53,651 bases of DNA from Dehalococcoidia bacterium. GTDB lineage: Bacteria; Chloroflexota; Dehalococcoidia; Tepidiformales; Tepidiformaceae. A program made the position numbers and the translations under genes. Below, in pieces: positions 21,737 to 25,625 of this stretch (position 1 is its first letter; each line of letters begins with the position of its first letter). Under the pieces are notes generated by a model. That model saw only the letters and a list, made by a program, of their open reading frames with translations. It was not told the DNA's origin and ran no database searches. Where the stretch lies: contig JAGQHB010000064.1 in NCBI GenBank assembly GCA_020432045.1, positions 1 through 53,651 of the forward strand, given 5' to 3'.

Positions 21737-22681
21737 CTACCACCAGATCTTCGTCTCCACTTCACCCGGCTGGTCTTTCCAGTCCACCGTCCATAGGTTC
21801 GAACTCAGGTACTTCCAACCCCCGTCCGCCAGCAAGCAGACGATGTGCTGTTCGCCCTCCAGCCGTTCCGCCGCCTTCAACGCCGCCTTCACCACCGCGC
21901 CACAGCTGATCCCGACGAAAAGGCCCTCCCGCTGCGTCAGCTCCTTCGACATCGCGAAGCTACTCTGGCTGTCCACCACGATTCGCCCGTCCAGGACGCT
22001 CTCGTCCAGCACCGGCGGGATGAATCCCTCTTCCAGTGCCCGCAGACCCTGCACCAGGTCGCCCGGGTGCGGTGCCGCCGCGATGATCCGCACGCTTGGC
22101 TTGAAGTCCTTGAGGTAGCGGCCCGCACCCGTCAGCGTCCCACCCGTCCCCAGTCCTGCCACGAACACCGTCGTCTGTGGCAAGTCTCGCAGGATCTCCG
22201 GCCCTGTCGTCTCGTAATGCGCTCGCGGGTTCGCTTCGTTCCCGTACTGGTAAGGGAAGTAGTACTTGCCGGGATTCTCCTCCACGACCTTCTTGGCCAG
22301 CGCGATCGACCCGTTCGAGCCAAGGTCCCCCGGCGAATAGATGATCTCCGCCCCAAACGCCTTCAGCAGGATGCTGCGCTCCTCGCTCACGCTCTCCGGC
22401 ATTACGCAGACTACGTGGTACCCCTTCACTCGCCCGATCATCGCTAGCCCGATTCCGGTATTCCCCGAGGTTGGCTCCAGGATCGTAGCTCCGGGCATTA
22501 GCTCCCCGCGTTTTTCCGCCGCTTCGATCATGAACTTTGCGATACGGTCCTTCACCGAGCCCGTCGGGTTCTGCCCTTCAAGCTTGGCGTAGATATGCAC
22601 ATCCGGCCGGGGCGCCAGCGACCGCAGCTCCACCATCGGGGTATTACCGATCATGTCCAACACCGAAGAATAGAGCGCCAT
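21737..22681 (-). CDS. cysM: Cysteine synthase, CysM type (sulfur-carrier-dependent)
   Basis: A 314-residue PLP enzyme of the O-acetylserine/O-phosphoserine sulfhydrylase family. The Schiff-base lysine is Lys44 in NPTGSVKDR, the substrate loop is PTSGNTG (70-76), and the PLP-phosphate loop is GTGGT. The C-terminal part (LLADGGWKYLSSNLW, then an acidic tail) resembles mycobacterial CysM, which accepts sulfur from the CysO thiocarboxylate. Its neighbour is a CysO-like carrier 29 bases upstream, supporting that role. It is the last gene of a minus-strand operon with rrf2, cysK, the E1 fusion and cysO. Confidence 0.9.
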   Translation of the reverse strand: MALYSSVLDMIGNTPMVELRSLAPRPDVHIYAKLEGQNPTGSVKDRIAKFMIEAAEKRGELMPGATILEPTSGNTGIGLAMIGRVKGYHVVCVMPESVSEERSILLKAFGAEIIYSPGDLGSNGSIALAKKVVEENPGKYYFPYQYGNEANPRAHYETTGPEILRDLPQTTVFVAGLGTGGTLTGAGRYLKDFKPSVRIIAAAPHPGDLVQGLRALEEGFIPPVLDESVLDGRIVVDSQSSFAMSKELTQREGLFVGISCGAVVKAALKAAERLEGEQHIVCLLADGGWKYLSSNLWTVDWKDQPGEVETKIWW

Positions 22682-22710: not shown

Positions 22711-23004
22711 TCAGCAGCCGCCGGCCAACGCCGGCAGGATGTCGATCGTGTCGCCCTTTTTCACCGGCGTCTCCGGTCCGCCCGTATAGCGGATGTCTTC
22801 GTCGTTCAGGTACACGTTCACGAAGCGGTGCAGCTTCTGGTCTTCTCCAAACATCTGCCCCTTGAACCCCGGATAGCGGTTATCCAGGTCCTCAAGGATC
22901 GCCCGCACGGTCGATCCGTTGGCCGAGACAGTCTTCTGACCGCCGACCAGCTTCTGCAGTACGGCCGTCACCCGCACCTGGACCTCTGGCGTTTCCACGC
23001 TCAT
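22711..23004 (-). CDS. cysO: CysO/MoaD-like sulfur carrier protein ending in Gly-Gly-Cys
   Basis: A 97-residue beta-grasp carrier. The segment STVRAILEDLDNRYPGFKGQMF and the NVYLNDEDIRY strand are typical of MoaD/ThiS/CysO proteins. The C-terminus reads PALAGGC: one cysteine follows the diglycine that should be adenylated and thiocarboxylated. CysO normally ends in GG. The encoded end is identical to the CysO-cysteine adduct formed during sulfur transfer, so maturation would need a Mec-type JAMM protease, which is not in this window. It lies between the E1 fusion and cysM. Confidence 0.88.
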   Translation of the reverse strand: MSVETPEVQVRVTAVLQKLVGGQKTVSANGSTVRAILEDLDNRYPGFKGQMFGEDQKLHRFVNVYLNDEDIRYTGGPETPVKKGDTIDILPALAGGC

Positions 23005-23052: not shown

Positions 23053-24162
23053 TTAGCCCCCGAAAGGCGCTTCGCGGTGCGGGATCGGAGCCCCGCAGAA
23101 TACTTCGTAGTCAATCAGCTCGCTGATCGTCGGGTTGTCGCCGCAAAGCGGACACTCCGGGTCCCGTCGCACCTTCACTACCCGGAACTCCAGCGACAAC
23201 GCATCGTACAGGAGCAACCGGTTTACCAGCGGTTCTCCGACACCAAGGATCAGCTTTAGCACTTCCGTCGCCTGGATGCTGCCGATCGTCGCGCACATTG
23301 CACCGAGCACGCCTGCTTCTGCGCAGCTCGGCACCATCCCCGGTGGCGGCGGTGCTGGGTACAAGCAGCGATAGCAGCCCTTGCCCGGCAGGTACGTGGT
23401 CGCCTGCCCGTCAAACATCAGGATCGAACCGTCGATCAGCGGCTTCTTCAACAGGTAGCAGGCATCGTTCACCAGGTAACGCGTCGCGAAGTTGTCCGCA
23501 CCGTTAATCACGTAGTCGTACTGGCCAATGATCTCGAACGCGTTGTCGCTCGTGATCGGCTCTTCGTGCGTCACCACTTCGACGTTCGGGTTGTGCGCAT
23601 TCAAGCGAGCCTTCGCCGAATCCACCTTCGGGATGCCGATGCTGTCGGTCACGTGCAAGATCTGCCGCTGCAGGTTCGATCGGTCGACCACGTCGAAGTC
23701 GACGATGCCGATCTTGCCGATGCCTGCCAACGCCAAATACAGCGCCACGGGCGACCCGAGCCCGCCCGCGCCGATGATCAGCGCGCTTGACTCGATGATC
23801 TTCCGCTGTCCGGCACTCCCGACCTGCGGCATGATCAGGTGGCGGCTGTAGCGGTCCACCATCTCCGGGGTCATCACCGTCGGGCCAGCACCCCCGGCCA
23901 GTGCCGGGATCACCGCGATCTCGTCTCCGTCGTTCAACGGTGTCGCCGCGCCCTGCAGATTCTCGATCTCCACCTGGTTCACATACACGTTGATGTGCCG
24001 CGCCAGGTGTCCCTGTGCATCCATCAACTGCGCATTAAACCCCGGGAACTGCGTGTCGAGGTCGCTCAGCGCTTCCATCACATTCGCGCCACGCGCGTGC
24101 ACACTCGCCCGGTTTCCCACCAGGTGACGAAACGGCGTCGGGATATACACACTTACTGACAT
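23053..24162 (-). CDS. MoeB/ThiF-type adenylyltransferase fused to an N-terminal sulfur carrier domain
   Basis: A 369-residue E1-like enzyme. Residues 1-91 are a beta-grasp carrier domain ending in PALAGG (Gly90-Gly91), and residues 95-369 a MoeB/ThiF adenylyltransferase with GAGGLG at 131-136, the catalytic Cys280 in PSCAEAG, and zinc ligands Cys263, Cys266, Cys337 and Cys340. There is no C-terminal rhodanese. It would adenylate carrier C-termini and form thiocarboxylate; whether the fused carrier is used in cis needs cleavage after Gly91. An AGGAGG stretch precedes the ATG. It lies between cysK and cysO. Confidence 0.9.
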   Translation of the reverse strand: MSVSVYIPTPFRHLVGNRASVHARGANVMEALSDLDTQFPGFNAQLMDAQGHLARHINVYVNQVEIENLQGAATPLNDGDEIAVIPALAGGAGPTVMTPEMVDRYSRHLIMPQVGSAGQRKIIESSALIIGAGGLGSPVALYLALAGIGKIGIVDFDVVDRSNLQRQILHVTDSIGIPKVDSAKARLNAHNPNVEVVTHEEPITSDNAFEIIGQYDYVINGADNFATRYLVNDACYLLKKPLIDGSILMFDGQATTYLPGKGCYRCLYPAPPPPGMVPSCAEAGVLGAMCATIGSIQATEVLKLILGVGEPLVNRLLLYDALSLEFRVVKVRRDPECPLCGDNPTISELIDYEVFCGAPIPHREAPFGG

Positions 24163-24258: not shown

Positions 24259-25191
24259 TTACAGGTTGACGCTCAGGTATCGCTCCCCCGTATCACATAG
24301 CATCGTCACGACCGTCTTTCCCGGCCCAAGCTTCGCCGCCACCATCCCCGCCGCCAGCGTGTTCGCAGCAGCAGAGATGCCGACCAGCAATCCTTCCTCT
24401 CGCGCCAGCCGCCGCGTCATCACCAGCGCGTCCTTGTCTTCAATGCGGATCACTTCGTCGTAGACGTCCCGGTCCAGCACACCGGGTATGAAACTCGCCC
24501 CGATGCCCTGGATCTGGTGGATCCCGGCTCTGCCACCGCTCAACACCGGCGACTTCGAAGGCTCCACCGCTACGATCCGCACGCCCGGCACCCGTTCCTT
24601 CAGGTAGTGCCCCACGCCCGTTACCGTGCCGCCCGTGCCCACGCCCGCGACGAACGCGTCAATCCTTCCACCCGTCGCTTCGAAGATCTCGGGCCCCGTC
24701 GTCAAGTAGTGCACTTCTGGGTTGGATGGGTTCTCGAACTGTTGCGGCATGAAGCAGGCCGGGTTCTTGTCCACCAGCTGCTTCGCCGCGAACACGGCTC
24801 CCGTCATCCCTTCGATTGCAGGTGTGAGCACCACTTCCGCTCCGTATCGCTCGAACAGCCTTCGCCGTTCCACCGACATGTCTTCGGGCATCGTCAACAC
24901 CAGCCGGTAGCCCTTCACCGCTGCGACCATCGCCAGCCCGATCCCCGTGTTCCCGGACGTCGGCTCCACGATCGTGGCGCCCGGCTGCAGCTTGCCGGCC
25001 CTTTCGGCCGCCTCCACCATCGCCAGCGCGATCCGGTCTTTCACGCTCCCTGCGGGGTTCAGATTCTCGCACTTCCCCAGTACCTCGGCGCTCCCGTTCG
25101 CGATTACCCGGTGCAGACGCACCAATGGTGTCCGTCCGATCAGTTCGAGTGCGGAATCGGCAATCGCGGGTCGTATCGTCTGCGCGCTCAT
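24259..25191 (-). CDS. cysK: Cysteine synthase A (O-acetylserine sulfhydrylase)
   Basis: A 310-residue PLP enzyme with the Schiff-base Lys51 in NPAGSVKDR, the PTSGNTG substrate loop, the GTGGTVTGVG phosphate loop, and the Gly-rich GISAAAN segment. This is the free-sulfide CysK branch, so the operon holds two different cysteine synthases. ATG 25191 gives the family N-terminus and overlaps the upstream rrf2 gene by four bases, so the two are coupled. Confidence 0.92.
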   Translation of the reverse strand: MSAQTIRPAIADSALELIGRTPLVRLHRVIANGSAEVLGKCENLNPAGSVKDRIALAMVEAAERAGKLQPGATIVEPTSGNTGIGLAMVAAVKGYRLVLTMPEDMSVERRRLFERYGAEVVLTPAIEGMTGAVFAAKQLVDKNPACFMPQQFENPSNPEVHYLTTGPEIFEATGGRIDAFVAGVGTGGTVTGVGHYLKERVPGVRIVAVEPSKSPVLSGGRAGIHQIQGIGASFIPGVLDRDVYDEVIRIEDKDALVMTRRLAREEGLLVGISAAANTLAAGMVAAKLGPGKTVVTMLCDTGERYLSVNL

Positions 25192-25625
25192 ATCACGTAC
25201 CGCCCGGTCGTCGCATGCGGTTCCTTCTCCAGGAGGTCGGCCACCGAATACGTCGCCAGGATCGATGTCGTCGCTTCCCGGATGCGCTCCCAGATCTCCC
25301 GCTGCCCGCACTGGTGGGGGTGGTCCGTCGAATCTGGCGGCTCATCAAGCCACGAAACCGGCGATAGGCTGCCTTCCAGCGCCTGGATGACCTCCAGCAC
25401 GGTCACGTCCCTCGGGTTCTTCACCAGCTCATGTCCGCCCGAAGGCCCGCGAATTGAACGGATGATCCCGGCCTTCCGCAACGTCGTCAGCAACTGGTCC
25501 AGGTACTGCTCCGGGATGTGCCGGCGCAGCGCAATCTCAGACGATTGCAGCGGCCCCTGCCCGAAATGGCCGGCCAGCTCAATCAGGGCGCGGAGCCCGT
25601 AGTCGCTGCGAGATGAGACGCGCAC
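25188..25625 (-). CDS. Rrf2-family transcriptional regulator (CymR/IscR-like)
   Basis: A 145-residue winged-helix regulator (MRVSSRSDYGLRALIELA, then IPEQYLDQLLTTLRKAGIIRSIRGPSGG). Only one cysteine remains in the C-terminal region where IscR has three, in HQCGQREIW, so it is closer to CymR-type sulfur regulators than to Fe-S-binding IscR. The GTG start at 25625 has AAGGA nine bases upstream. It is the first gene of the cysteine operon and overlaps cysK, so it likely controls this operon, possibly in response to cysteine or O-acetylserine. Confidence 0.9.
   Translation of the reverse strand: MRVSSRSDYGLRALIELAGHFGQGPLQSSEIALRRHIPEQYLDQLLTTLRKAGIIRSIRGPSGGHELVKNPRDVTVLEVIQALEGSLSPVSWLDEPPDSTDHPHQCGQREIWERIREATTSILATYSVADLLEKEPHATTGRYVI

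What the first reader, a model, noticed from the sequence alone, without database searches (positions are those of the whole stretch)
22711..23004. Sulfur carrier encoded with Cys after the Gly-Gly end
The CysO-like protein ends in AGGC. Established CysO chemistry produces a CysO-cysteine adduct with the same sequence after S-to-N shift, cleaved by a Mec-type JAMM protease. An encoded Cys would make the primary product equal to this adduct, requiring the same protease for maturation and releasing a cysteine once. Similar C-terminal processing is known for some other sulfur carriers. Mec is not in this window.
Basis: partly seen in the sequence, partly recalled or inferred. Interest (0 to 1): 0.75.

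Follow-up and report, generated by a model that had tools for sequence, protein, structure and literature searches.

The report
Capped sulfur carrier for cysteine synthesis
This bacterium encodes its cysteine-making sulfur carrier with one extra cysteine after the working Gly-Gly end; such removable caps are common and already described in relatives, so it is a real but largely ordinary feature that the usual JAMM protease should trim.

Summary
In detail: 22711-23004 (-) is a 97-residue ThiS/CysO-type carrier that ends ALAGGC (GGC GGC TGC TGA). It lies in an operon with Rrf2, a CysK-like synthase, a ThiS-ThiF fusion and a CysM of the M. tuberculosis type. The genome has one Mec-type JAMM gene, outside the window.

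The Cys is one of many caps. Of 110 orthologues in the class, 27 end exactly in GG and 83 carry 1-30 extra residues (single ones: A 8, C 6, Q 5, L 5, R 4, S 3, N 3). Cys caps arose repeatedly (at least 5 changes in a 184-row tree) and recur in other phyla. A single-Cys cap after GG was already reported: PtmS3 of Streptomyces platensis, whose thioacid pathway needs a JAMM gene (PMC6006322).

Best reading: a JAMM/Mec protease uncaps the carrier, and the same cut releases cysteine in each cycle, so any cap the protease accepts is tolerated. New support: the residue after GG is never P, W, F, Y or H (0/122, against 10/78 at the next cap position). Cys is over-represented there (9/122 against 1.1% background). 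That fits, but does not prove, a protease that prefers its natural GG-Cys substrate. New member of a known kind.

The parts
22711..23004 (-). CysO-type sulfur carrier, 97 aa, ends ALAGGC
   Evidence: ThiS PF02597 62 bits; PDB 4n6e_B 94 bits, 3dwg_C (Mtb CysO) 84 bits
22711..22716 (-). the encoded Cys cap (TGC) and the stop codon TGA
   Evidence: GGC GGC TGC TGA
21737..22681 (-). CysM-type cysteine synthase (O-phosphoserine sulfhydrylase type), 314 aa
   Evidence: PALP; best PDB match is Mtb CysM 3dki, 301 bits, aligned to the C-terminal Trp; the residue at Mtb CysM Arg220 is Arg here too
23053..24162 (-). ThiS-ThiF fusion, 369 aa: a second carrier domain (...ALAGG) running directly into an E1-like ThiF domain, no rhodanese domain found
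   Evidence: PF02597 47.5 bits residues 5-91 and PF00899 282 bits residues 105-338, no other family
24259..25191 (-). CysK-like cysteine synthase
   Evidence: PALP 255 bits; start placed at the internal ATG of the 350-aa ORF
25188..25625 (-). Rrf2-family regulator, likely regulator of the operon (inferred from position)
   Evidence: PF02082 124 bits

Best explanation
The gene encodes a CysO-type sulfur carrier in a capped form. A Mec-type JAMM metalloprotease, encoded elsewhere in the genome, cuts after Gly-Gly. The E1-like enzyme then adenylates the exposed glycine and it becomes a thiocarboxylate; CysM joins it to an aminoacrylate made from O-phosphoserine to give CysO-Cys; and the same JAMM enzyme releases cysteine and regenerates the carrier. 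Because that protease is needed in every cycle anyway, the gene can keep any short cap that the protease accepts. Cys is one such cap, and here it happens to equal the adduct. Shown here: the sequence, the operon, the presence and motif of the JAMM gene, cap variability, and the restricted residue after GG. Inferred: the cleavage, the sulfur transfer, and that this JAMM protein is the protease. The sulfur donor is not identified.
For: The carrier has Mtb CysO among its best solved matches and the synthase has Mtb CysM as its best. The genome has one Prok-JAB protein with the complete motif HSHTGSEARPSPTD and an upstream Glu. In its family 34 of 38 genomes have the JAMM gene, with about 4 absences expected from incompleteness alone (summed by hand). 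In the class at least 54 genomes have CysO and JAMM within 5.4 kb of each other (median 2.6 kb; read from the tables, tallied). The first cap residue is never P/W/F/Y/H (0/122; next position 10/78, Fisher p 5.6e-5; all later cap residues 53/359), as expected of a P1' site. CysO also occurs fused in frame to CysM (L314, L250) and to E1 (L184), which needs a cut after GG to work. Published precedents: QbsD uncaps QbsE, and deleting JAMM ptmS1 abolishes the products that capped carriers PtmS2 (MV) and PtmS3 (C) are inferred to supply (PMC6006322); DRJAMM cuts MoaD-MoaE to expose Gly (PMC8832034); Mec releases cysteine from CysO-Cys (PMC3227635).
Against: No cleavage was tested. In this genome the JAMM gene is not linked to the operon but sits by folate genes. 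G141 (94% complete) has a capped CysO (GGR) and no JAMM hit, though this may be a gap in the assembly. MoaD proteins elsewhere in the class are also capped, so caps are not confined to carriers that form amino-acid adducts. Another peptidase could do the trimming; the protease that cuts MoaX in mycobacteria was unidentified in PMC4326299.
Confidence: 0.78

Rival explanations
1. The Cys cap is under positive selection because it makes the newborn carrier identical to the natural Mec substrate, so maturation uses the best possible cleavage site.
For: Cys is the first cap residue in 9 of 122 dereplicated caps against 1.1% background (p 6.5e-6 if independent). 10 changes on the tree, at least 5 forced by well-supported branches. 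It recurs in Chloroflexota, Actinomycetota and Acidobacteriota.
Against: Most caps are not Cys; the nearest relatives of this carrier carry a 14-residue cap or none. One of 22 capped MoaD proteins also has Cys (L194), so it is not specific to CysO. TGC/TGT may arise easily by mutation of a TGA stop or by duplication of CTG in GGCTGA. The contrast with later cap residues is weak (Fisher p 0.07).
Confidence: 0.15
2. The cap is plain drift at the gene end with no constraint; the residue after GG means nothing.
For: Caps change length and sequence even within a genus: g3 has Q and R, g6 has none and ARS.
Against: The GG motif was found in every class orthologue scored, and the next residue excludes P, W, F, Y and H and nearly excludes V, I and T, unlike later cap residues.
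Confidence: 0.05
3. The terminal Cys thiol itself carries sulfur as a persulfide, so the carrier works without a free Gly-Gly end.
For: The thiol lies next to the normal sulfur site (sequence).
Against: Most orthologues in the same operon have no Cys there, while GG is kept throughout.
Confidence: 0.01
4. Assembly or annotation error; the true gene ends at GG.
For: It is a single extra codon at the gene end.
Against: GGC ends occur in many separate assemblies with different codons and stops.
Confidence: 0.01

Closest known systems
CysO of Mycobacterium tuberculosis (with MoeZ, CysM, Mec)
   Same: Mtb CysO and CysM are among the nearest solved relatives of carrier and synthase; E1-like, synthase and JAMM genes are all present in the genome.
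   Different: The gene encodes Cys after GG, whereas Mtb CysO ends in GG (3dwg_C, 93 aa). The E1 here is fused to a second carrier domain and shows no rhodanese domain. The JAMM gene is unlinked.
PtmS3 and PtmS2 of Streptomyces platensis (capped carriers, JAMM PtmS1)
   Same: PtmS3 has a single Cys after GG, exactly as here; the pathway needs the JAMM gene (PMC6006322).
   Different: There the carriers were studied as sulfur donors for a natural-product thioacid; here the carrier lies in a cysteine operon of a Chloroflexota bacterium.
QbsE / QbsD of Pseudomonas (thioquinolobactin)
   Same: A capped carrier whose cap is removed by the protease QbsD (cited in PMC6006322).
   Different: From memory the QbsE cap is Cys-Phe, two residues; siderophore pathway. 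The original paper was not held.
MoaD-MoaE fusions cut by JAMM (Deinococcus DRJAMM) and MoaX of M. tuberculosis
   Same: A cut after Gly-Gly is needed to expose the carrier end (PMC8832034, PMC4326299).
   Different: The cap is a whole enzyme domain; molybdenum cofactor pathway; the MoaX protease was unidentified.

Membership tests
CysO-type sulfur carriers | ThiS/MoaD beta-grasp family with a Gly-Gly motif at the end of the domain | tested here: met
   PF02597 62 bits; the P-A-x-x-GG motif was found in all 110 class orthologues
CysO-type sulfur carriers | The encoded protein ends in Gly-Gly | tested here: not met
   Ends GGC; uncapping is needed first. 83 of 110 class orthologues share this deviation
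[quoted passage not shown]
CysO-type sulfur carriers | Mec-type JAMM protease in the genome | tested here: met
   One gene over the cut-off, G000:C96, complete motif
CysO-type sulfur carriers | Thiocarboxylate and CysO-Cys adduct are formed | not testable with these tools
   needs mass spectrometry
Capped (JAMM-matured) sulfur carriers | One or a few encoded residues after GG | tested here: met
   one residue, Cys
Capped (JAMM-matured) sulfur carriers | A JAMM protease removes the cap | not testable with these tools
   gene present, cleavage not shown
CysM O-phosphoserine sulfhydrylase | Arg equivalent to Mtb CysM Arg220 (phosphate binding, from memory) | tested here: met
   Arg aligned to Arg in the 3dki alignment

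The most novel reading that the evidence does not exclude
Encoded caps of CysO carriers evolve towards the natural product-side residue of their own protease: Cys is gained again and again because GG-Cys is the best Mec site, so the carrier is born in the form of its own reaction intermediate.
Probability: 0.15. Interest if true: 0.5.

Novelty: new member of a known kind. Interest (0 to 1): 0.3.

Why it matters
It shows that in this class a CysO-type carrier ending exactly in GG is the exception. Gene finders and experimenters should expect a cap and should remove it, or supply the JAMM enzyme, before assays. The restricted residue after GG gives a testable guess at the P1' preference of Mec-type proteases.

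Tried and rejected
(1) Cys conserved because of function: rejected as stated; 104 of 110 class orthologues do not end in a lone Cys. (2) MoaD as a clean negative control: in the same family 21 of 24 MoaD proteins end exactly in GG, but elsewhere in the class most MoaD proteins examined are capped or fused to MoaE, so caps are not specific to CysO. (3) Cap origin by stop-codon loss alone: does not fit well, since W, Y, K and E single caps are absent while A and N are frequent; not modelled further. (4) Absence of JAMM in capped genomes as a refutation: the 4 of 38 absences match expected incompleteness. (5) Acidobacterial caps ending in RC: the last codons CGA TGT TGA hold an ATG TTG frame, so overlap with the next gene's start probably explains them; overlap not confirmed. 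(7) The Godert 2007 and Sasaki 2014 papers are not held. Structure prediction was not used: sequence evidence was enough and it would not show cleavage.

Full report
What is there. The minus-strand ORF 22711-23004 encodes 97 residues ending ALAGGC; the last codons are GGC GGC TGC TGA. It is a ThiS-family protein, and its best solved relatives include M. tuberculosis CysO. The minus-strand gene order is Rrf2 regulator, CysK-like synthase, ThiS-ThiF fusion, the carrier, then a CysM-type synthase whose best solved relative is Mtb CysM along its whole length, including the C-terminal Trp and the residue at Arg220. The genome (G000) has one Prok-JAB protein over the cut-off, on another contig next to folate genes (the folate genes were recognised by eye), with the complete JAMM motif. 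Relatives with named records are Dehalococcoidia and Tepidiformaceae of the Chloroflexota.

Is the Cys special? A census of 110 orthologues from the same class shows 27 ending exactly in GG and 83 with 1-30 extra residues; 38 caps are single residues: A 8, C 6, Q 5, L 5, R 4, S 3, N 3, and one each of G, M, V, I. The two carriers nearest to this one on the tree carry ADWRPRDEAAKDAK and no cap. Caps change within a genus.

Cys does recur. On a tree of 184 carriers, 13 Cys-first caps need 10 changes, at least 5 forced by well-supported branches (short alignment, many weak forks). In search tables a match reaching query residue 97 marked Cys in all 12 extra cases read, including genomes from the phylum of the Actinomycetota locus L171. 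After collapsing near-identical carriers, Cys begins 9 of 122 caps against 1.1% background. These p-values assume independence, and caps were sampled mostly from hits close to the query.

A constraint at the cut site. The residue after GG is mostly small: A, S, G or C in 77 of 122. P, W, F, Y and H never occur (0 of 122), against 10 of 78 at the next cap position (Fisher p 5.6e-5) and 53 of 359 over all later cap residues. This is what a P1' preference of a processing protease would leave. In-frame fusions of CysO to CysM (L314, L250) and to ThiF (L184) also begin with A or S after GG.

The protease. In the own family 34 of 38 genomes have the JAMM gene; summed incompleteness predicts about 4 absences. 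In the class, at least 54 genomes place JAMM within 5.4 kb of CysO. In the own family the two tables show it unlinked. In the own genome five other ThiS-family proteins (L035-L039) end exactly in GG, while L033 (with a threonine synthase-like and a NIL-type gene, identified by eye) ends GGS.

Prior knowledge. Mec hydrolyses CysO-Cys to free cysteine (PMC3227635). PMC6006322 reports that PtmS3 of Streptomyces platensis has a single Cys after GG and PtmS2 has MV, that capped carriers typically need a protease such as QbsD, and that deleting the JAMM gene ptmS1 abolishes the products. DRJAMM cuts MoaD-MoaE (PMC8832034); MoaX is cut after Gly82 (PMC4326299); and JAB trimming of ThiS/MoaD fusions was predicted, and a Ub-like-ThiF fusion beside cysteine synthase was described, in 2006 (PMC1779556). 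The present gene is therefore a new member of a known kind.

Verdict. Observation confirmed; interpretation partly supported. The most likely mechanism is uncapping by the JAMM/Mec enzyme that the CysO cycle needs anyway. That Cys is favoured because it equals the natural adduct is open (about 15%).

Noticed in passing
L314 and L250: In-frame fusions of a CysO-type carrier to a CysM-type synthase (VLPAVAGG-AAHDSILDAIGNTPVV with no start codon between in L314; LPAMAGG-AVTTERRGLYRDIVEAIGHTP in L250, where an internal GTG could still start CysM).
   Followed up: partly
23053-24162 (-): A ThiS domain runs straight into an E1-like ThiF domain (ALAGGAGPTVMTP...); in some relatives the upstream ThiS-type carrier is a separate short protein with its own cap.
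   Followed up: partly
L215, L218, L219: MoaD appears fused to MoaE; many class genomes show MoaD in open frames of about 240 aa, which would also need a cut after GG.
   Followed up: partly
L033 1489-1767 (G000:C16): A third carrier in this genome, beside threonine synthase-like and NIL-type genes, ends GGS; its pathway is not established here.
   Followed up: no
L194: A MoaD of the same family (genome G288) also ends GGC.
   Followed up: no
25188-25191: The CysK-like ATG overlaps the Rrf2 stop by four bases (ATGA), suggesting translational coupling.
   Followed up: no
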